In this document: positions 21,213-60,895 of the stretch, piece by piece
How the letters are laid out: each line of letters starts with the position of its first letter
Numbering within the stretch: position 1 is the first letter of the stretch
Origin: Ischnura elegans
Taxonomy: Eukaryota; Arthropoda; Insecta; Odonata; Coenagrionidae
Assembly (NCBI RefSeq): GCF_921293095.1
Contig: NC_060254.1
Location: forward strand, 6,820,001 to 6,884,000
DNA length: 64,000 bases
Reading direction: 5' to 3'
Notes under the pieces: generated by a model
What the model was told of the DNA's origin: nothing
Seen by the model: the letters and a program-made list of their open reading frames with translations, nothing else
The model's database searches: none
Program-made: the position numbers and the translations under genes

Positions 21213-21260
21213 TTATCATTAGTGAGACACAGAGCAAATGTGACATTGGCAAATGTGCAT

Positions 21261-23797
21261 TAGGCCGGCCCTTATTTTTCATAATTGCGAAAAGTTATGT
21301 TTTCCTGGTCTCAAAATGATCCAAATGAGGTTTATATTCACGTTTTAAAATGTGGTTACTTTAAAATAACGGCAACCCGTGCCCCAAGGGCCCTAAGTAC
21401 TAAGGACCCTTAATTGAGTTTTTTGGGGTCGAAAAAGTGCTATTCCTATGTAAAACGTAAAAGTAAAGCCCTTTAGGGCCAATTTTCTGTTTGTTTTGAC
21501 CTATCTCTAAGCGTTTAGGGGATATCGTCCGTCTTAATGCAGTCCCCCCCAGGGCGCCTCCCCGCACCGCGGTGCCACTGAGGTACGGCCCGCACCACTT
21601 ACTACAGACTTCCCCTCAACCCCCTCCCCTCCCTCGGCAAGACTTTGCTCCTGATGACAATATTTACATGCTAGTGGTACAGTATTGGATAGGTTGTCCT
21701 CTTGTGTAATGATTAATGTTGTTAAAGCCTATAATGTCAATTTTAACCCTTCAACGCCGTCCTTTGCACTGGGTACCGACCCCTTAAATCTTAATTTTTT
21801 GCCGCCTTACGGCCGCGAACCATTCCAGCAGGCTTTGTTCCAAAGTCCTCCTTATGTAAAAAATATTATAAGCATGCGATACAATTGTGTCGATGAATTA
21901 TAAAGGAATGAAGGGAATCAGCAGGGCTTCCAGTGCTCCAGCAGTAGATAGAAATATTCAAGGAAGAAGAAACGGGGTAGTCAGTTCACGGATGCAGATC
22001 ACTATGGAGAGATAGTTCTTGTGTATAGCGTACAAAGGTTAGAAGGTGCTAAGTTTTTTAGGATGTAAGGAGAAAAGTGGTGAAATAAATACTTTATCAT
22101 GAACTTGACGTTCATTTTAAGAATAGACCAACAAGGAAAGACATGTAAACAAGAATAAATCCATGCATTGAACTGGTTGGAAAAAAAGTGAAGAAATACT
22201 CAGCTCAAATTTACCTACAGTGAGAGAAGTACTGTGTGTTTTCTTTATCACCTAATGGGTTCGAAATTTGTAAGACTTAGTGCGAGAAAAACCGTGAGAA
22301 ATGCGTCTCATACATGGTACAAAACTAGAATTCCTGTTATTACGGAAAATAAGGCGATTGAAAAGTGAGAAAATGACGCAAAGAATGGATGAACGTGCAA
22401 CGACATAAAGAGAGCACGAACTACAGTAGAGATGAAGAGAAGAGAATCTTTCGTAACAAAACTTGATGATACGTTTAAAATTTCAAGGAGCGGTACCATT
22501 GAATTTATGACGCACGAGGAGGAAAGTGCAGTTAATCTCACGGATAAATGTGCTTGGGCTGAAGAAATTAAGTTCTTACGCACATAAAGAGGAGAACGAA
22601 ATGCAGTTATTGGTTGAATAGATTTCAATATATTCAAGAAGGAAGGAAAAGATGTGGTTATCCGCACCATGTGCTGCATTAGCTTCCAACAGTGACCCGC
22701 AGTTCATAAAAAGACTTGTTAATTACGAAAGTGTTAGCCTGGATATAGCGAAAGCAGCACAAAAGAGGTTTTCAAACCACTTGTGGTACATGAGTGAGGA
22801 GTTGGTAGGCCTGTCATTTTTTGACGGCTCCATTTCTAGGCGTGAAAAGAAAAACGTGATACGCCGTATGTGGTCATGTAAAGGAAAATATGATCCACCG
22901 AAGAAGGCATTCTATAAACATAAAGACATGGCTAAGGTATCTATACCAAATTTTGTCACTACTAATTCGAGAAAGCTATTTAATGCATTGTAAAGATGCA
23001 TTGCATTTTATAATGCGCACATTCGAGAATGGGATGAACATACAACAACGATTTGCAAATTATTCGGGGTCATCAAGTGGGAAATGATAGCGCAGCGAGA
23101 GGGGTGAAACTGATTCAAGATTTTTAGGCAGTCACGTTGAGGGAAAAGGGCTTTCAAAATTTATTACTAAGTGTGACTTTTCATCGCAATACAACCCTTA
23201 CGTGCGGAAAGGCACATTAATTGCCAAACATGGGATGTCAGTGAAAAATTAGAAATACAATGAAAATGTATTTTATTTTGGATAATGTACCGAAATTCAT
23301 CGACAGAGTGAAAATAAATTGGTCTCTTGGATTGGAAGTATTGTTATGGCAATTAAATTCTTTCTAAGGTAAGCACATTTCTTCAGAGGCTAGATCTTGC
23401 CAGTGTGAGCAAAGTCTTTGCCGAGGGCGTGGAGGGGGTTGAGGGGAAGTCTGTAGTAAGTGGTGCGGGCCGTACCTCAGCGGCGCCGCGGTGCGGGGAG
23501 GCGCCCTGGGGGGGACTGCATTAAGACGGACGATATCCCCTAAACGCTTAGAGATAGGTCAAAACAAACAGAAAATTGGCCTCAAAGAACTTTACTTTTA
23601 CGTTTTACATAGGAATAGCACTTTTTCGACCCCAAAAAACTCAATTAAGGGTCCTTAGTACTTAGGGCCCTTGGGGCACGGGTTGCCGTTATTTTAAAGT
23701 AACCACATTTTAACACGTGAATATAAACCTCATTTGGATCATTTTGAGACCAGGAAAACATAACTTTTCGCAATTATGAAAAATAAGGGCTGGCCTA
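21261..23797. mobile_element. hAT-like element with about 392-bp inverted termini
   Basis: A 2537-bp element starting TAGGCCGGCCCTTATTTTTC and ending with the complement of TAGGCCAGCCCTTATTTTTC, flanked by perfect 8-bp duplications ATGTGCAT (21253-21260 and 23798-23805). The inverted ends (21261 to about 21652, and about 23406 to 23797) are almost identical apart from scattered changes, so the copy is young. The 8-bp duplication suggests hAT, but hAT ends are normally short; termini this long are unusual. The interior carries a protein relic (22400-23130). Confidence 0.85.
22400..23130 (+). pseudogene. Relic of an element-borne protein of unknown function
   Basis: Collinear fragments: KRRESFVTKLDDTF (near 22434-22475), the open frame 22652-22993 with KRFSNHLWYMSEELVGLSFF, and GNDSAARGVKLIQDF (near 23080-23124). 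I recall a repeat-associated arthropod/cnidarian family without an established function that shows these blocks in this order (FVTKLDDLF, SNHLWYLSEELV, NDxAERGVxLIQ). The match is from memory and needs a search. Stops (for example TAG after LIQDF) show it is broken. Confidence 0.5.
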
Positions 23798-23809
23798 ATG
23801 TGCATACTC

Positions 23810-35416: not shown

Positions 35417-38400
35417 TTACCATTCCGTGGGAGAGTTTCCTCGAGCCATGGGTTCTATTTCCTCTGGATCACTGGCATCAACCTTCATCTCTTCTCCTGC
35501 AAGAGCAGCTTCATCATCCACTTCCATCGAAATCCTCTTCTTACGCCTCTCTTTACTCTTCAGAATATTCTCGGCTATATATTTCTCCATTGACTCGTAA
35601 TTCTCAGGTTGCTCTTGTAAATAGACATCAGGTATCTAAGATCAGAGAGAGTGAAATCTAATGTCAATAATTAACATTTATAAATTAAAATATATCAGAT
35701 AAATTGCAATATATAATAATTGACAGTGCGTACAGTCAACAGTGTCATACATTTAAATCAAGAAATGAGAGAGAGAATGCTCTGTAATGCGTAAATGATG
35801 AATTGCAAGGAAACTCATGTTTATTCTTCCGTATTACTGTGAAAAAAAACCCATCAACTATGGCCTCCAGCTCTATTTTGTGGAATTTCACCATGGTGGG
35901 ACTCTGATGAGTTGCATTCTTGACATCGACTGACTAAACACTAAACCAGTTCTTCATATTGTTGCAGCCACAACTTCCAGCAATCTCTTTTTCTCAGTCA
36001 AAGCCTTCCTCTCTTGCACGTATGAGGTGTACGCCATTTCCATCGCCAATGCTACTACAAACAAAGTTCACAGTTGTCCTCTCTTTGTCTAGTGCCAAGA
36101 ATTCTCCCTACCATCTGCATTCGCTCGCTCTGCATTTGCATCGCTCAATATGCAGCTGGGCTAAATTGAACTGCCCTCAGTTGAACCCAAACAAAACCCA
36201 AGCTATAATTTTTGGTAATAAAAGACTTCTAAACACAATTGCTTATGACAGCCTCCCAAATTTAAGTGTCGCTTCCACCACTGCGCCGGTTACCAAGACT
36301 GTAAGATATCTTGGACTCACGCTCACCTGCAATCTATCATGGGATCAGCATGTGCTTGAAATATGTAATAAAGGGAATAAGGCTCTTTATTTATTGAAAC
36401 TACAAAAGAAAAACCTCCCTATTTCCACGAGAATTATGCTAGTCACATGTGTTATCTTCCCCATTATTGATTATTGTATACTGGTCTATAATGACTTACC
36501 TAGTGTATTTGAAATGTGTCTGCAACAGTTAATTAACTCCTGTATTAGATTTATATTTGATTTACGTAGAGATGAACTTTTGTCCAAATTCTACACTGAT
36601 CTGAATTGGTTACCTCTTCACAGCCGAAGGGATTATATCCTGGGATATTTTCTGTTCTCCTTATTCCAAAAACAGACTCCTGCATACCTGTACGAATTAT
36701 TCATCTCCCGCAAAAAAGTTACTGGAATTTCCACCCGCCGTGTTTCTGACCTTCAAATTCCCCAAGCCCGCACCAATATACATTTCAAATCTTTTCATCC
36801 AACTGCGTCTAGATTCTGGAACTCTCTTCCGCCAAATATAAAGTCGTCACAATCACTTCAGTCGTTTAAAAGAAGGCTGTACTCGTATTTGAAGTCTGGG
36901 GCTTAATTCAGTCTCCTAAACTCATTAGAGTTATTATCTTAAAGTTGTGTATGTTAACAAAACTTTCTACATAAATATGCATATGTATGTGTGTGTTCAT
37001 TACTGTCTACGTTAAAACTTATATTTCTGTGTTATTAGTATTGAATATTTTACATCTTTTGTATAAATATCTACTACTTGTCAAAATGCCTTTATTAAGA
37101 TTTAGAACATTTCCTGTATTTTCCCTTTTTTCTTGCTCTCATAGGTTTTACCTAGAGCATAATAAAAATATTATATTCCATTCTACCATAATATTTCATA
37201 TGAAGTTTTCATGCTCGAGTAAATGTCCCATGAGCTTTCCTTTTCTTGTTTTAAACGTTTCCAATAGTTCACCTTCTGCATGGACTTTGTGAGAAATTTG
37301 CTCACTAGTTTTTGCTAGTTGAGTTCTTGTAACCCTCCTCCTCCAAAATCACATTTCTGAAGATACAATCAATCTTTTGCCATTTCACTCTTCCTTGGGG
37401 CCTCACTCACATCCATAGGGTGTCAGGGCACACTCCATAAAAAACTGCTGAGGAATTTCTTCGAAGCCTCAATACTAATGAGTAATGATGCTATGTATTC
37501 ATTGGGAGACTTTAATTTCAAAACTGGCTGATATGATAAAAATTGAGTGGAACATTACTATAGTTTTGTCACTCTTGTCATGACAAAATCTTGTTACTTT
37601 CAGAGACATCGTAATAATAATAAGATACATATTCCTAACATTAACAGAGACCATGGCTAACCAATCAGCAACGTGTGGAAGAGAGAGTGCTGACCATTCA
37701 GCCCTCATCAGAAGGACAGCCAGAGCTGCGCTATGGCAAACAATCAAGGGTTATCACCTTTGACCTGAAGACGAAAGTGGAATGGCTTTTGAAACTGTTT
37801 TCACTCACAAAGAACAAACGTGGACATTCTTTCCATCTGTTCCCTTTACCATAGCTTTCAGACATAAGATTTACATTATTCTTGCATCTAACCAATCTTC
37901 AGAAGTGCATCCTGGTATCATTTGGCGTGTTCACCAATGCTCCATGCAAAGACAGTGCCGTTTTGTTAGCGCAAGTACCACAGCTGGTGAATGAGAGAAT
38001 GATGGCTCAGGCGGATGATGAAACACATGCTCCTCAATGGATGCGTGCGCAACACAAAATATTATTTCACATTCGACAATAGAATCTATGGCCAAAATGA
38101 GGGACTGGCATCGTGTCCTCCTCAGTCACTTCTTCTGGCTAATTCACGCAGGGATAATTTCAAATGACTGGGAATTAATTTGTGAATTTTTTATTTACAG
38201 AAGACCAGTGCCTAGGTAGGGAGGTAGAATACTGATTTAGTTCCAGGTTAAATGAATAAAAGATAAGTAGCTGCTAGAGCATGTTCCCCAAACACTATTT
38301 CTGGTAAATTCACAGGTTAAACTAATATTAAATATAATGTAGCACTACACCCAGTCATACATATTTATGCCAAAGGATCTCATTTATGCTTTTCTTAAAA

Positions 38401-41400
38401 ACATGTAATAACATTTCATCCGAGGATTTAGCCTTCATTTTCCTTGAGTGAAAATTTTACAAATTGCCTCGGTGCTATTTCAGCATGGAAAGGATCACAC
38501 GTCACTCCAAAATCTTCCTCATTCACCCATAATGTGAAAAAGTAAAAAAATGCAAGAAGTCACCGTTCACTTTTCATGAGTTAGGGATGTCATAAGAGTT
38601 CCACTCCATGAAGTTGTTCAGGGAGAATCGCTCATTGAGTGGGGGGAATGCTCACAAGCAAAAATGAACCCTGCATTGTATGGGAGTAGGGGAGGCGCAG
38701 AGACCAGCACGGCAGGATTTGGTGACATCATCAACTTAACTGCAAAAGGGTTAAGATCATTCATATGCACTACAAATATCTCAGGAGGTAATGTGAGTAT
38801 TGAAAAATGAAAAAAAATATGGATCTCTATTGCAACTGAAAGTAAAATAACATAGGTGAAAGCCCGTTAATTATATGTAACTATGGTTCTGAGTATTGGA
38901 GTTCCAGGATCAAGATCTGGTGGATCAGCCCATCCGTACATTTGCACTCACCTTCTTCACTCTTCTAAAGCTCCAAGAAGGATGAGAAAGTGCACAGTGC
39001 ATGAGAAAGTCTACAGTGGAAGTAAACTAGCCCAAGTATTTCCCTTGATTTTTATGACGAAAGTGAACCAGTGGCGTAGCCAGGATTTTGAAATGGAGGG
39101 GAAGAGTTTAGCGGAGATTTAAGGGCCCTTCCAGGGTGTATGGAAAACAAAAAGGGGATTCTCTTTTGAAGGCTCAACGGGGGGCTTTCAACCCAGCAAA
39201 CCCCTCTGTCACTGATCACATCGCCTGCATTTGAAAAGTCTGCATAAAGAGACACTTTCCCAAGGTATGTCACAAACCCACAATTTGTGATATCAAAGTG
39301 AATTTTTCGGGTGAAAGACACTGGGAAGTTGTGAATTCTATGTGAAATTCGGTGGGGAACTGTGAATATTTGCTGTACAATCAAAAAACACAGCAAATAC
39401 ATAATGGTATGCGACTGTAGCAAAGTGCTTCAGCCTATATTTCTCAAAGAGTGCTGTTGACTGGCTTAGATCTTACCTCAGCGGTCGCACTCAAGCAGTG
39501 GTGGTCAGTAGTAACCTACAGTCAAACTGGATCCCTAATCCCGTGGGGATGGTACAAGGCTCAGTTCTTAGCCCACTTCTTTTTTCTCTCTTTATAAACG
39601 ACCTCCCTGATGTCCTCATGCATTGTGACTACCACCTTTACGCCGACGATTTTCAAATTTATCGTCATTCATCGCCGTCCAATATCATTAATTCAATAGC
39701 ACTTATCAATGAGGACATCGAGAGAATTAACAGTTGGGCGCAGGCCAATCATTTGGTTCTCAATGACAAGAAAACAACAGCAATAATTATAGGGAGCAAT
39801 TATTTCTTTTCCCAATTAGACCATGAAAATCTACCAAAAATAAGACTTGGTAGCCACAATATACCTTATGAGGAAACGGTAAAAAACCTTGGAGTCATAT
39901 TCGATCGAACCCTTAGCTGGAAGCCTCAAACAAATTATGCGAGGCGTAAATTTTTGGGATCACTGCATCAACTTGTCAGAGCCAGAGAAATACTTACACC
40001 CGACATACGAATTTCATTAGTTAAAACACTAGTCTTCCCCCACTTGGATTATTGTACAGCCTTATTCACTAACCAAGACGACGCAAACAATAACAGACTC
40101 CAATTGGCCATGAATTCGGCAGTAAGATTTATTTACGATTTAAAAAAATGGGACCATATTAGTAATTATTACAACCGCCTTAACTGGCTTAAGTATAAAG
40201 AGCGTCGCACCCTTCACATAATAACTCTAGCCTTTAGTGTCTTAACGACCGGTTACCCGCCATACTTGTACGAGAAATTCGTTAGAAAATCTGAGGTTCA
40301 TAATATACCTACCCGTAATCATAACATTGACCTCCATATTCCAAAACATCACACGCCTCATATGAACAAATCATTCATAGTAACCGCCTCACGAATATGG
40401 AACTCTCTCCCAGCCCAAATAAGAAGCAGTACAAACATCAATAGGTTTAAACACAGCACATATGGGTTTCTGAAGAATGCCTCCTTATCCCCAAGTTAAA
40501 TCTCTTTTGTTTATATTCACTTTCTTATGTTCATATTTCTTGTTTATATTCACTTTTTTATGTTCATATCTCTTGTTCGTATTTCTTTTGTTTGTCACCT
40601 TAAATTTTGTAATTAGTGTGTTATATCTGAGTGCGATTATTTATTTTTTGTCGAAAATATTGTATTGTTTTTTTTTTCATGCACTAGACGATATGCACTG
40701 TTCACATTTGTCTGTATATGTATATATATTTATTTACTTTTTTTCTTTTATTTATCTATCTCAATGTGAAATGTAGAAAGCTGTACTTATATTTTCTCAT
40801 GGGCCCCAGTGCCTACGAAAATAAACGATATTATTATTATTATTATATTGACATGGGTTTAAAAACTTACCCACTGAAAATAAAAACAATTAAAAGGTGT
40901 ACAAAATTAGACTAAGAGAAGATTTGACCTCACAACCATCCAACCTCTTAACTTTTCACAACCAACTCACTCATCTAATGAATAAGAACAGCAAACAAAT
41001 ACTGTAATAGTGTGCTATTTCTGAGCGCATGCATTGAAACATTGAATGTACACCTAAATTAATGAACAAAGAGCACAAGTATACTACTTCATAACCATGA
41101 AAGAGGCTATTGTAATTAGTTTATTTCATAAGGCTGACAATGCACAAAGTCAGCTCCACTACCATTAAGTCATGCTGAATAAGTGGTACTTGTTCTGCTA
41201 CAACAGAAGAGTGAGACTGATTAAAGGCACCCCCCTTCACTGCAAATAATTACAAGACTACTACTGACAGAAATATAGTTTGAGATCGCAACAAATTTTG
41301 AAACAGAATATGTTTGGCAGGGATTTAACACACCTTGCACTAACAGCTCCATGGCAATTATTTCACAATAAAATTAACATCAAGCACACTTGGTGCATAG

Positions 41401-51290: not shown

Positions 51291-51891
51291 GGTTGTCGCG
51301 AAAAGGAATGAACCAGTCTTAAGACTCGTGACAAGGTCGTAATGAATCCCCTTCGGAATCAACGAATGAGATGGAGTATTGGTTAAGAAGAATAATTACT
51401 GCGGCAGTAAGCCGAAGTCGGTACTTCGAGCCTCTCTGCAATAATTTTTTTTCAGTTACATGGTTTGACAGTAACAATTTTTTAAATCCACTTTAACACA
51501 TATTAACTTAGTTACACACTGCTGTCGTTATAAAATTTTTAATAGTGAAAATTCTCGTTTTGCTTTCAGCAAATATCATTATTCGTTTTTATCGAAATAT
51601 CAATGCATCAATAATGTGGAAAATATTTCAGTCAGGTAAACTGCTTCATCAAGTCCTTTTTCGTTGGAATTCACTGGAATTGCCAATTACATTTCGCTGA
51701 CAAAGGGGACCACATACCTTGCTCCGCCTTTTTCAGTGCCATATTTTTCATGGCATTCGGAATGGCGAACACATCTCGGAAAAGATAGTGGTTCCATTGA
51801 ATGGGCCTTAGTTTGGCAGTAATTAATTAATTTTCGACCGGTATTCGAACAAGCGTTTTATCTTCCCAAAATAAGGCGGCTCCCAATAGTT

Positions 51892-51960
51892 GGGTTGTTT
51901 GGTGTATACGTGAGCGTCTTCAGATGGTACCGCGGCAGCCAGGGTTCGAGTCTTCGCCAC
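51892..51960 (+). pseudogene. tRNA-like segment, left arm
   Basis: TTTGGTGTATACGTGAGCG (A-box-like) and AGGGTTCGAGTC (B-box-like) in the left arm, homologous to 52700-52766. The stems do not fold as a good cloverleaf. Confidence 0.35.
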
Positions 51961-52245
51961 GCAAGTATATTTTGTAGTCTCCATTTTGATCATGCAGCGA
52001 CAAGTATTTCACTAATTTTAATTTTAGCAAACATAGGCGTGAGACATTATTTTTATCATTATAACGGCGATTAGGTATTCCAGCAATGTCATTACGGGCG
52101 CAGAGATATGACGACTAGTAAGGGTAAGTGTGCGCTAAAATGTTAATTTTTTGTATTACTTATTATGATAAACTGCCAAATTAAAAATGAAAATCTTTTC
52201 TTGCGAAAGCACGTGCCAATAAGCTTAGGTTTTCCCGGCGTATCA

Positions 52246-52361: not shown

Positions 52362-52699
52362 ATGCCAATAAGGCCCGCGGGAGCAGCAGTGTGAGTGCAG
52401 ATGTATTAAATAAGAACACAAAACAGATATAAATTGCCATATTTCTCTAACGCTTATAATTCACATTACTGCAATGTTTACTTCGAGAACCTACATACAA
52501 AAAGAGCCATTCCCAAAACATTAGTTCAATTAACAAACACAAGTATAACCTTCATATCACCGCGTATAAATGGCTCAGTTAAAATACCTAATCGCCGTTA
52601 TGATGATAAAAAATTTCTCACGCCCATGTTTGCTGCAATTAAAATTAGTGAAATACGTGTCGCCGCATTATCAACATGAAGACTACAAAATGTATTACC

Positions 52700-52766
52700 G
52701 TGACGAACCCTCGAACCCTTGCCTCCCGGGTGAAAGCTGAAGACGCTCACCTCTAGACCAACAAAC
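52700..52766 (-). pseudogene. tRNA-Glu-like segment, right arm
   Basis: The minus strand reads TTGGTCTAGAGGTGAGCG (A box), GCTTTCACC (anticodon-loop-like, UUC) and AAGGGTTCGAGGG (B box). This resembles tRNA-Glu(UUC), but the T and anticodon stems do not pair well, so it is a tRNA-derived relic rather than a gene. Confidence 0.45.
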
Positions 52767-52984
52767 CCATCTGTATGGAGCAGTCTTCATTTGGGAAGAT
52801 ACAACGCTTGTTAAAAATACAGCTCGAAATTGATTAATTACAGCCAAACTAAGGCCGATTCAATGGAACCACTATCAGTTCAGAGATGTGTTCACCATCC
52901 CGAATGCCATAAAAAATACGGCACTGAAAAAGGCGGAGAAAGGTACGTGGTCTCCCCTAGTGAGTACCTTACCAGACAAAGCCA

Positions 52985-54640
52985 TACAGAGCATTCTAAA
53001 GGAGGATGAGCAGTCGTCCACCAACACCTAACGTCAAGTAGGGCAACCTACAGGGATACCTCCTCATAAGTTATTCTCGCCGTGGAGGTAAAAGCCTCAA
53101 ATCTATCAGATTTTTGCCTCTGGGGCGTCATTTTTGCTCTGAAGAGGACATTTTCGAAGCCGGCTATTAGTGTCGTATGATATATCAGGAGGTATCTTCG
53201 TAAATGACATCATTAGAATTTGTTTACGTTCTTCCTTCATCTTTCGTGATTGTTGATGACCTTTGAACGGCTGACTTATCGTCTCTCCCGTGAACGTCTG
53301 GCTAGTCGTAATAGAACCCCTCCGGTTATCGTCTTTTCGCTGAGAGGCATATAGAGCATTGTGATGGAGGATGAGTAGTCGTCCACCAACACCCTACGTC
53401 AAGTAGGGCAACTTACAGGGGTACCTCCTTATAAGTTATTCTCGCCGTGGACGTAAAAGATTCAAATCTATCAGATTTACCTCTGAGGCGTCATTTATTC
53501 ACCTCTGAGGCGTCATTTATTCTTTGAAGAGGGCATTTTCTAAGCCAGCTCTTAGTGTCGTATGATATATCAGGAGGCATATTCGTGAATGGTGTCATTA
53601 GAATTTGTTTACGTTCTTCCTGCCTCTTTCGTGATTGTTGACTGCCCTTTGAACGGCTGACTTATCGTCTCTCCCATGGACAGATGGCTAGTCGTAATGC
53701 AACCCCTCCGCTTTTATCCTCTTTTCGCAGAGTACCTCGCATGACAGTGGCATATAGAGGATTAAGAAGAAGGGCGAGTAGTAGCTCAAGTCAAGTAGAA
53801 CTGCGAGATTGTGAAGTAGGGTGAGTAGTCGTCCACTAACAGGTCAAGTCCATTAGGGCAACTTACAGGGATACCTTATAAGTTATTCTCGTCGTGGAGG
53901 GAAAAGCCTCGAATTTCGCCGTTACTTGCTTTTGATATGGCAGATCTTACTCCAAGATGGACATTATCGAGTCCAGCTATTAGTTTCGTATGATATATCA
54001 GGTGGTATGGTCGTAAATGTTGTCATTAGAATTTGTTTACGTTATTGCGTCGACCTATGCAGCTTTTGTCTGTCGACTGACGACTTTAACGGCTGGCTTC
54101 TCGTAATGTATCCCTCATGCCTTGCCTCCCTCTGCTGGATACTACACCAGCCAAAGATTATCACAGCATTTTAGAGTAGGATGAGTGGTCGAACGCAAGC
54201 AACAACAAGCTGAAATCAAGCGGGGCAATATACAGGGATACCTCCTTCAGTGGCGGATACAGATGGGGGGCGCAGGGGGCGCGCGCCCCCCCCTTGCGGG
54301 TCCGCTTGTATTGCCGAACATTGCAAAACCACAATTGTAACATTTTTATATCATAAGATGGCATTGTCTTTTACATGTTTATAATCACTTTAAATAAAAT
54401 TTTCATATACTTTGCCTGCGACTTGATCATCTTTTATTATCTACGATAAAAGTAAAGACAACTCAAGATATGTTGCGCCCCCCTTGAGTTTTTTCTGTAT
54501 CCGCCACTGACCTCCTTACACGTTATTCTTGTTATGGAGGTACAAGCCTCAAATCTCACAGAATTTTTTCCATTGGACCCAAAATATCCTCTAAATATGG
54601 CATCCTCTGAGAGTCGTATTATGAAGTATTCTTCTAAATG
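52985..54640. repeat. Tandem array of four diverged units of about 350-450 bp
   Basis: Units start at about 52992, 53351, 53817 and 54165. Each begins GATGAGTAGTCGTCC or similar, followed by GGGCAACTTACAGGG, TAAGTTATTCTCGCCGTGGA, GTCGTATGATATATCAGG and CATTAGAATTTGTTTACGTT. The spacing between units 1 and 2 is about 359 bases. Unit 4 is shortened and interrupted by a MITE (54248-54509). No coding sense. Confidence 0.85.
54248..54509. mobile_element. hAT-type MITE, CAGTGGCGGATAC family, copy 1
   Basis: A 262-bp element, ends CAGTGGCGGATACAGA and (complement) CAGTGGCGGATACAGAAAAA, flanked by perfect duplications ACCTCCTT (54240-54247, 54510-54517). Inserted in unit 4 of the tandem array. A G/C-rich block lies near each end. 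Confidence 0.9.
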
Positions 54641-58672: not shown

Positions 58673-60895
58673 ACATCTACATCTACACAACACCCCGCAA
58701 GCCGCCTAAAAGGCGTGTGGCAGGGGGTATTAGGACACCAGCCGTTTACAACTATAAAAAAAGAAGTGCTCTAACGAGGTTGGGACTAGCGTTTATTAAA
58801 GTCCTTTATGGTTCGGGGGAAAAACGAATTCCCATATCTATCCGTTCGGCAAAACATCTCTATTAATTTATCGCTTCTATCGGACCTGGAGATATAGTGT
58901 GGCTCTAATAATATGTTCTCTGTGTCTCTCTTAAAGATATCATTCCGAGTCTCCAACGGCTCCCAGCCTAATTCACTTAACATCTGGGTAACACTGTCTG
59001 TACGCCCGTAGCAGTTTTTGACGAAACGCGCAGCCTTCCTTTGTATTTTATTCATTTCGCGGATTAAGTCTTTCTGCACCGGATCCCATACGCTCGATGC
59101 ATATTCAAGGTGCGGTCGGACGAGAGCGAAATAGCACATTTCTTTTACTCTGCCATCCGAAAATCTTCCCATAATACGCTTGACGAATCCTAATTTCTTC
59201 AGGGCTATGCCGCAAATATTCTTTATGTGTGTTCCCCACGTGAGGTTCGAGGTTATCGTAACTCCCAGGTACTTCACTTCGTCTGTTGCCTTTATGTTAA
59301 TACCATCCACTGCATAAACATGGTTAGAATTGGACGAATTCCGCAAGAAATGTACCGCCATGCATTTGCTCAGATTAAGTTCGACTCCCCACTCTTGGCT
59401 CCACAAATGTACGCTGTTTAAGTCAGATGATAGAATTTCATAGTCAGAGTGATCAATAATTTCGCGGTAGATGACAGCGTCGTCAGCAAATAAACGTATT
59501 TTACTACTAATGCGGGGGCAGAGATCATTAATGTATATTATGAACAACTGGGGGCCGATTACGCTTCCTTGTGGAACACCTGATGTAACTTTTACAACAT
59601 CAGAGCTAATTCCGTCAAGAACTACTTTTTCTTTACGATCTCTGAGAAAGTCGCGTATCCAGTTTACAACTGTCTCGTTTAATCCGCATGACTGCAATTT
59701 GTATAAAAGTTTGTTGTGAGGTACAGTGTCGAAAGCTTTCTTAAAATCTAGAAATAGTGCGTCAACTTGTCTTTTTGATTCACCAGATTTCAAAACGTCG
59801 TGAAGAAAGAGCGCGAGCTGAGTTTCGCATGATATATACCTTTTCGGAATCCGTGCTGACAGTCATGGAGGAAGTTACGTCTGTCCAAGAAAGTCATGAT
59901 ATTGCTAACGATGATATGCTCGAGTATCTTGCCTATAATCGATGTTAATGAAATCGGACGGTAGTTCCCTGGGTCATGTATGTTTCCCTTTTTGAATATG
60001 GGTGTAACGCTTGCAATTTTCCAGTCTGGCGGTAACTTCCCTTCGGAGAGTGACTTCTTGAATATGATCTCTAAGTAAGGTGCGATCTGTGGAGCTAAAT
60101 CCTTGAGGACACGCGCGGGTATTCCCTTCGGACCCGGAGATTTACTATTCTTAATCGATTGTAGTTTAGTTATCCCATCACGTTGTATAGATATTTCTTC
60201 CATCGATTCGTCAGAATGTGGGATGTCTAAATTGAATTGAGAATCGTTAGTAGTGTATACACTTTCGAAGTGGGAATTTAAAGTGTTAGCTTTGTCAATA
60301 ATTTCGGTGACAAGTTTACCATCTTTATCAAATAACGAATCTACGGTGGAATGTTTTCCCTGAAGCTCTCTCGCGTACGACCAAAAGGATTTCGGATTTT
60401 CTTCGAGTAATTCACCGAGAACTTTTTTCTTAAACTTTCGCATTGCAGTTCGCATTGATTTCTTGGTTATTGAGCGTTGTGCAGCGTAAATTTCTCTAGC
60501 TTCAAGTTCCTTCGATTTATTACGTGACGTAATGGACTTTCTGTACAAATTGTATAGTTTTCTCTGTTTCCTAAATTCTCTTCTGACATCGTTGTTGTAC
60601 CAGCGAGGTTCCTTATTATCACATTTCAGTTTTTGCGGAAAATGTTCGTTGATTCGTTGGCGCAGAATTTCTAAGAAACGTGTCCATATTACATCTGTGC
60701 TTTGGTCCTTTGATGTAACAACGAATTTTTTGAAGGAGTCATTAAACATCTCGCCAAATTTAGTGAAGTTACATTTATCAAATAGGTAAATATTGCGTTT
60801 TGGTTTTACGGCTGACACTACATCAATTTTTAGCGTTGCAAGGATTAAAAACTTCTGCCACAATGTCTATCTTCTTGACGACAGGTAACAGTGAA
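58673..60895 (-). mobile_element. LINE, 5'-truncated, RT domain with one frameshift
   Basis: Two overlapping minus-strand frames (60863-59790 and 59793-58786) together give linker, full RT and C-terminus. The first has NPKSFWSYARELQGKHS, SKSPGPKGIPARVLKDLAPQ, PPDWKIASVTPIFKKGN, NYRPISLTSIIGKILE and CQHGFRKG. The second has [40 protein letters not shown], the FADD box in RLFADDAVIY, KYLGVTITSNLTW, and HLEYASSVWDP. They are joined by one shift in a TATATA run near 59835. The endonuclease is missing. The tail has CCCTGCCACACGCC and TGTAGATGTAGATG, as at 35285-35365. Jockey/CR1-type by motifs. Confidence 0.9.

What the first reader, a model, noticed from the sequence alone, without database searches (positions are those of the whole stretch)
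21261..23797. hAT-like element with about 392-bp inverted termini and an unfamiliar protein relic
A perfect 8-bp duplication (ATGTGCAT) and nearly identical inverted ends of about 392 bp, far longer than usual hAT ends (normally tens of bases at most). The interior shows conserved blocks of a repeat-borne protein family that I only know as uncharacterised. This may be an undescribed DNA transposon group.
Basis: partly seen in the sequence, partly recalled or inferred. Interest (0 to 1): 0.75.

Follow-up and report, generated by a model that had tools for sequence, protein, structure and literature searches.

The report
Long-ended hAT-like jumping gene family
The window holds a dead, internally deleted copy of a cut-and-paste DNA transposon; intact relatives in the same genome encode an unclassified transposase that looks like a distant cousin of the hAT enzymes and has unusually long, matching ends.

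Summary
In detail: a 2,537-bp element at 21261-23797 with ~390-bp inverted ends (97% alike) and a perfect 8-bp duplication ATGTGCAT. It is one of at least 33 full-length copies in this 1.72-Gb genome. It is a non-autonomous derivative: one 1,477-bp internal deletion removed most of the catalytic core of a transposase gene. The same genome holds a 4.03-kb autonomous relative (~412-bp ends; four near-identical places, at most three independent loci) encoding an intact 775-aa, four-exon protein. That protein belongs to a diverse family with no meaningful Pfam or PDB match. Invariant D, D, CxxH, RW and E residues lie in hAT order; D-D and D-E spacings are hAT-like. Profile comparison favours hAT over P and MULE, significantly only around D2 and CxxH. 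Duplications follow the hAT target rule nTnnnnAn (here nTGTACAn). A mariner-like repeat shows the empty site. The hAT dimerisation and BED domains were not found, and three sister lineages have 9-bp duplications, so I call it hAT-like, not a proven hAT. The two ends of each copy are kept alike by end-to-end homogenisation. Whether Repbase or Dfam already name it could not be tested.

The parts
21253..21260 (.). left target-site duplication ATGTGCAT
21261..21650 (+). left terminal inverted repeat (~390 bp), begins TAGGCCGGCCCT
22107..22649 (+). relic of transposase exon 1, broken by stops and frameshifts; 22225-22650 matches residues 44-187 and 22107-22445 matches residues 5-118 weakly
22649..22650 (+). 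deletion junction: the 1,477 bp at L029 2950-4426 are absent (end of exon 1, exons 2 and 3, start of exon 4)
22650..23196 (+). relic of transposase exon 4 (113-aa open piece 22652-22990); the block with the presumed catalytic E reads A instead of E
23408..23797 (+). right terminal inverted repeat (~390 bp), ends AGGGCTGGCCTA
23798..23805 (.). right target-site duplication ATGTGCAT

Best explanation
The window element is a non-autonomous, internally deleted copy of a cut-and-paste DNA transposon. An intact 4.03-kb relative in the same genome encodes a 775-aa DDE transposase that is distantly related to hAT transposases but outside the Pfam hAT models. Inferred mechanism: this transposase, acting in trans, pairs the two ends (the outermost 20 bases of the window copy equal those of the autonomous copy on the left and differ at one base on the right), cuts the element out and joins it to staggered cuts at nTGTACAn, giving 8-bp duplications. 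The long ends are a secondary elaboration: the two arms of a copy are kept alike by copying one onto the other, probably during gap repair after excision. Shown: structure, copies, TSDs, empty site, deletion, intact ORF, arm homogenisation. Inferred: catalysis, use of the 2.5-kb copies as substrates, repair as the route of homogenisation, relation to hAT.
For: 33 full-length copies. TSDs: 14 of 17 deleted copies perfect (13, L023), L022 and L024 with one mismatch, L025 with two; T2 and A7 in 15 of 15 TSDs counted (13 plus two autonomous). Autonomous L029: ~412-bp arms, 775 aa; the frame is open to the same stop in L030, L050 and L036, with D, D, C, H, R, W, E all kept. The element differs from L029 by a single large deletion of 1,477 bp. 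Empty site: 16 of 42 matches run in one piece (76-87% identity) across the joined L029 flanks. Invariant D327, D392, C421, H424, R532, W533, E724 in four lineages. Spacing D-D 65 and D-E 332; in the nine of 11 own-genome hATs with every landmark found, D-D is 65-67 and D-E 323-334 in seven, 376-379 in two. hhalign of 5 family rows to 11 own-genome hAT rows: score 38.0, E 0.0014, D1, D2 and CxxH in register; best of 249 column shuffles 25.4. Arms: own-pair distance 0.025 vs 0.061 between copies, 0 of 20,000 re-pairings as low.
Against: No Pfam hAT hit in any of four lineages, though own-genome hATs score to 1.7e-21. hhalign probability is only 17.5%. Single family rows give E 0.007-0.14, p40 off register, and the three-row hAT subset L069-L071 gives E 0.12. 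The C-terminal half does not match hAT (E 0.29) and the better half matches over 65 columns around D2 and CxxH only; with 7 rows the match is 72 columns, score 36.8. C-to-W is 112 residues against 57-68 in hAT. Sister lineages L046, L047, L063 show 9-bp TSDs. Diverged copy L031 has AGGTGCAT, without T2. No structure was computed and no activity shown.
Confidence: 0.72

Rival explanations
1. It belongs to the P superfamily, like Galileo, which also has long inverted ends and a palindromic target.
For: Galileo: P superfamily, TIRs up to 1.2 kb, TSD consensus GTAGTAC (passages of PMC2775673). hhalign to own-genome P-like proteins scores 29.0 (E 0.019), just above the best of 150 shuffles (28.4); D2 and a CxxH-like motif align.
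Against: No TNP-like or THAP Pfam hit in four lineages, while own-genome P-like matches score to 4e-48. D1 is out of register if P's D1 is the D of MFDEM (recalled). Galileo TSDs are 7 bp. The P profile had only 4 rows (2 identical, 1 partial), so this test is weak.
Confidence: 0.1
2. It is a Mutator-like element (MULE): long ends, 8- to 10-bp TSDs.
For: Long TIRs; 9-bp TSDs in three sister lineages; a CxxH motif also stands in the own-genome MULEs (CLWH, CSWH, read by eye).
Against: hhalign to own-genome MULEs 15.8, not above 58 of 100 shuffles; no MULE Pfam hit. Only 3 MULE rows.
Confidence: 0.04
3. It is a separate superfamily of DDE transposons, sister to hAT rather than inside it.
For: No recognised transposase domain; no PDB match with a profile; 8- or 9-bp TSDs; only the stretch around D2 and CxxH matches hAT clearly.
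Against: 8-bp TSD, nTnnnnAn and D-D and D-E spacings agree with hAT; superfamily rank needs a structure-based tree.
Confidence: 0.3
4. The 2.5-kb copies are moved by one of the many standard hAT transposases of this genome, and the 775-aa protein is a passenger.
For: 150 own-genome matches to the hAT dimerisation domain (150 of 1,723 candidates scored), many in long open frames.
Against: The 775-aa protein lies within an element whose outermost 20 bases equal those of deleted copies; its family lies in TIR elements of three other lineages, L040, L046, L047/L063; the deleted copies correspond to it minus one segment.
Confidence: 0.07
5. The family is already named in Repbase or Dfam, perhaps filed under hAT.
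For: The protein family resembles uncharacterised repeat proteins that I recall from several animal genomes (recalled, not tested).
Against: Eight answered paper searches, one of them with the TIR letters, listed no paper that I recognised as describing it; most listed papers were seen only as titles and abstract starts.
Confidence: 0.45

Closest known systems
hAT superfamily (Hermes, hATx-6)
   Same: 8-bp TSD with nTnnnnAn (Hermes, passage seen); D, D, CxxH, RW, E in the same order; D-D and D-E spacing; D2 and CxxH region aligns
   Different: No BED or hATC domain by Pfam, both of which hATx-6 has (passage); ends 390-412 bp against 17 bp in Hermes; C-terminal half without significant match
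P superfamily, Galileo
   Same: Long TIRs, palindromic target, CxxH-like motif
   Different: 7-bp TSD; own-genome P-like proteins match a TNP-like domain, this one does not
Mutator-like and Foldback elements (e.g. Tetris)
   Same: Long TIRs and 8- to 10-bp TSDs (Tetris passages)
   Different: No profile match to MULE; no direct repeats inside the TIRs listed
Ac/Ds-type deletion derivatives
   Same: Internal deletion of an autonomous element, amplified as a non-autonomous family (Ac/Ds: start of an abstract)
   Different: Autonomous partner not of a recognised hAT type

Membership tests
hAT | 8-bp TSD | tested here: met
   14 of 17 deleted copies perfect, L029 and L030, sister L040-L043 4 of 4 readable. 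Three deeper sister lineages show 9 bp
hAT | target rule nTnnnnAn | tested here: met
   T2 and A7 in 15 of 15 TSDs and 4 of 4 of the sister family; exception L031 AGGTGCAT
hAT | hAT dimerisation domain (PF05699) | tested here: not met
   hmmscan of 4 lineages at E up to 1: no hit to it, only five unrelated weak ones; own-genome hATs hit to 1.7e-21
hAT | N-terminal BED zinc finger | tested here: not met
   no Pfam BED hit; not every hAT has one (recalled)
hAT | DDE residues with CxxH and RW in hAT order and spacing | tested here: inconclusive
   order and D-D, D-E spacing agree; C-to-W 112 against 57-68 does not; catalytic roles not tested
hAT | sequence homology of the catalytic domain | tested here: inconclusive
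   E 0.00025 over 65 columns around D2 and CxxH; C-terminal half E 0.29
hAT | short TIRs beginning YARNG (recalled) | tested here: not met
   TIR 390-412 bp beginning TAGGC; sister lineages begin TAGGG
hAT | fold: RNase H split by a helical insertion (recalled) | not testable with these tools
   the stated rule of structure prediction names window proteins and loci of other fetch tools; not sent
P superfamily | THAP and TNP-like domains | tested here: not met
   no such hit in 4 lineages; control for TNP-like_GBD
MULE | MULE transposase domain | tested here: not met
   no such hit in 4 lineages, control; hhalign within shuffles

The most novel reading that the evidence does not exclude
A superfamily of eukaryotic DDE cut-and-paste transposons, sister to hAT and not covered by Pfam, with 8- or 9-bp duplications and TAGG termini, in which long ends are found in several lineages and the two ends evolve in concert; in one lineage (L046) the copied end has grown into the transposase gene.
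Probability: 0.3. Interest if true: 0.7.

Novelty: new variant of a known kind. Interest (0 to 1): 0.5.

Why it matters
It attaches an intact and, judging by its near-identical copies, recently active transposase and exact ends to a repeat-borne protein family that no Pfam model covers. It offers a case for asking how transposons come to carry long ends: arms of one copy differ by 2.5%, arms of different copies by 6.1%, and private changes are shared by both arms. Sister lineages span short, 180-, 412- and about 476-bp ends, so the origin of long TIRs can be studied within one family. If the protein is hAT-related, it extends the hAT clade beyond its dimerisation domain.

Tried and rejected
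Relatives outside the genome: four collection scans, three of viral contigs and one of genome contigs, confirmed none. PDB by sequence and profile: two chance-level hits for exon 4 (E 2), nothing. IS3EU rejected: 6-bp TSD, TA..TA termini (passages of PMC10045372). Zisupton (8-bp TSD, passages) was considered; no KDZ hit among the Pfam results of four lineages. MULE: no match. The 2.54-kb element as an autonomous element: rejected, most of its catalytic core is deleted. The window's own empty site: 0 of 40 matches run across the joined flanks. Four independent autonomous insertions: rejected, L030 and L050 are identical over 5,001 bases with the same flanks. hATx-6 as this family: rejected, it has BED and hATC domains. 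Structure prediction was not tried: its stated rule does not list loci from whole-genome search. Rows and copies dropped: the hhalign family profile had 5 rows (7); tblastn pieces of L045, L061, L062, L064 were not used; arm statistics used 16 unique full copies of 24 locus rows; TSDs were read in 17.

Full report
Observation. The element runs exactly from 21261 to 23797, flanked by ATGTGCAT on both sides. Its arms are about 390 bp and 97% alike. The interior is about 1.76 kb and holds broken coding sequence. In the own genome (1.72 Gb, 110 contigs, unnamed) 33 of 122 matches, the window copy included, cover positions 1-2537 at 90-100% identity; only 40 of 1,490 candidates were scored, so this is a lower bound.

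Autonomous relative. A protein search with the 113-aa open relic (150 of 973 candidates scored) found, besides many relics, four places with a 282-aa open frame. L029 (contig C2) is a 4.03-kb element with arms of about 412 bp (98.8-99.0% alike in L029, 99.3-99.5% in L030) and TSD ATGCCCAC. Its gene joins over three GT-AG introns to 775 aa. L030 and L050 have the same protein and L036 differs at 5 residues; in all three the only stop is the last codon and the landmark residues are kept (the stop counted is that one). L030 (C14) and L050 (C16) are identical over 5,001 bases including flanks, so there are at most three independent loci. Only four places match the exon-2 query at 100%; the next best match is 41% identical.

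Origin of the window copy. Against L029 it aligns as two blocks (79% and 81%) with one large gap: L029 2950-4426 (1,477 bp) is absent, and the junction is at window 22649/22650. The lost segment holds both catalytic D residues, CxxH and RW; the remaining E block reads NDSAARG, with A in place of E. The copy is therefore dead and non-autonomous, comparable to Ds derived from Ac.

Insertion. Of 17 deleted copies whose two ends lie in the fetched loci, 14 have perfect 8-bp TSDs (13; L023), L022 and L024 have one mismatch and L025 two. Over 15 TSDs (13 plus two autonomous) counted in both orientations the pattern is nTGTACAn with T2 and A7 invariant. A diverged 4.4-kb copy, L031, has AGGTGCAT, without T2. 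Joining the L029 flanks gives a query that 16 of 42 own-genome matches cross in one aligned piece at 76-87% identity, so the empty site is seen in relatives of the repeat it entered (40 of 442 candidates scored); the right flank reads like a mariner transposase to me (letters printed; recalled, no family search). For the window copy no match crosses the join (0 of 40).

The protein family. Own-genome relatives at 27-43% identity over the matched stretch include L040-L044 (3.52 kb, ends TAGGGTGTCCC, short TIRs, 8-bp TSDs in 4 of 4 readable copies), L046 (ends TAGGGTGGCCC, about 476 bp of matching arms) and L047 and L063 (about 180-bp arms). L047 and L063 show 9-bp TSDs, and so does L046, where a run of C makes the reading less sure (one copy each). 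Relics were also met in L037, L038, L045 and L064. Four lineages aligned give invariant D327, D392, C421, H424, R532, W533 and E724. Pfam at E up to 1: no hit for the L029 protein and five unrelated weak hits among the other three; NCBIfam: two unrelated weak hits for the L029 protein; PDB profile: none at E up to 10.

Which superfamily. Spacings are D-D 65 and D-E 332. In nine of 11 own-genome hATs with every landmark found, D-D is 65-67, and D-E is 323-334 in seven and 376-379 in two; D-to-C is 19-21 in seven and 77-81 in two (29 here), and C-to-W is 57-68 (112 here). hhalign of five family rows with 11 hAT rows gives score 38.0, E 0.0014, probability 17.5%, with D1, D2 and CxxH in register; 249 column shuffles reach 25.4 (one further shuffle failed), and the reversed hAT alignment gives 17.1. 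Single family rows give E 0.007-0.14, with p40 off register; the seven-row hAT subset gives E 0.0028 and the three-row subset L069-L071 E 0.12. With seven family rows the score is 36.8 over 72 columns. Split in halves, the first gives E 0.00025 over 65 columns around D2 and CxxH and the second E 0.29. P-like proteins score 29.0 (best of 150 shuffles 28.4) and MULEs 15.8 (58 of 100 shuffles as high or higher). The P and MULE profiles were shallow (4 and 3 rows), so the ranking is suggestive only. I conclude that it works like a hAT and is probably a distant relative, but two hallmark domains were tested and not met, so I do not file it as a hAT.

Ends in concert. In 16 full copies the two arms of a copy differ on average by 0.025, arms of different copies by 0.061; 0 of 20,000 random re-pairings reach the observed mean. 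Left-left, right-right and left-right distances between copies are about equal (medians 0.063, 0.058, 0.061), so there is no side-specific history; 38 private variants are shared by both arms and 100 sit in one arm only; for 23 of 32 arms the nearest other arm is its own partner. Copying between arms, at least in the source lineages, explains this; the private-change rate in the interior (0.019 per site) is compatible with little copying after insertion. In L046 the right arm contains an inverted copy of about 45 transposase codons including the E block (arm, codons), as if an end had been copied inward. How the copying happens is inference; repair of excision gaps is my preferred route.

Literature. 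Seen as passages: PMC10045372, PMC12730594, PMC2775673, PMC4079207, PMC10368747; PMC8721813 part 1 of 4 and passages, which show that hATx-6 is a standard hAT with BED and hATC domains and so not this family. Other papers were seen only as search listings. I recognised no description of the family in the eight answered searches, which cover open-licence papers only.

Noticed in passing
window 51705-52079 and 52583-52956: Another pair of inverted arms, 378 columns at 84%, possibly a second long-TIR or foldback element
   Followed up: no
window 52980-54043: Imperfect direct repeats of about 240-390 bases at 79-84%
   Followed up: no
window 35959-36906, 39498-40499, 58786-60863: Open frames that read like LINE reverse-transcriptase parts (by eye, no family search)
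   Followed up: no
L046 47-600 and 3298-3774: The right arm of a sister element carries an inverted copy of the 3' end of its own transposase gene
   Followed up: partly
L030 and L050: Contigs C14 and C16 share 5,001 identical bases, a recent segmental duplication or an assembly duplicate
   Followed up: partly
L025 109-2689: A deleted copy whose flanks (GTGTACAG, CTGTACAT) share the target core but differ at both edges, as if recombined between two insertions
   Followed up: no
L064 784-1373 and 2653-3244: Inverted repeats of about 600 bases at 86.5% in a locus with a relic of the same transposase family
   Followed up: no
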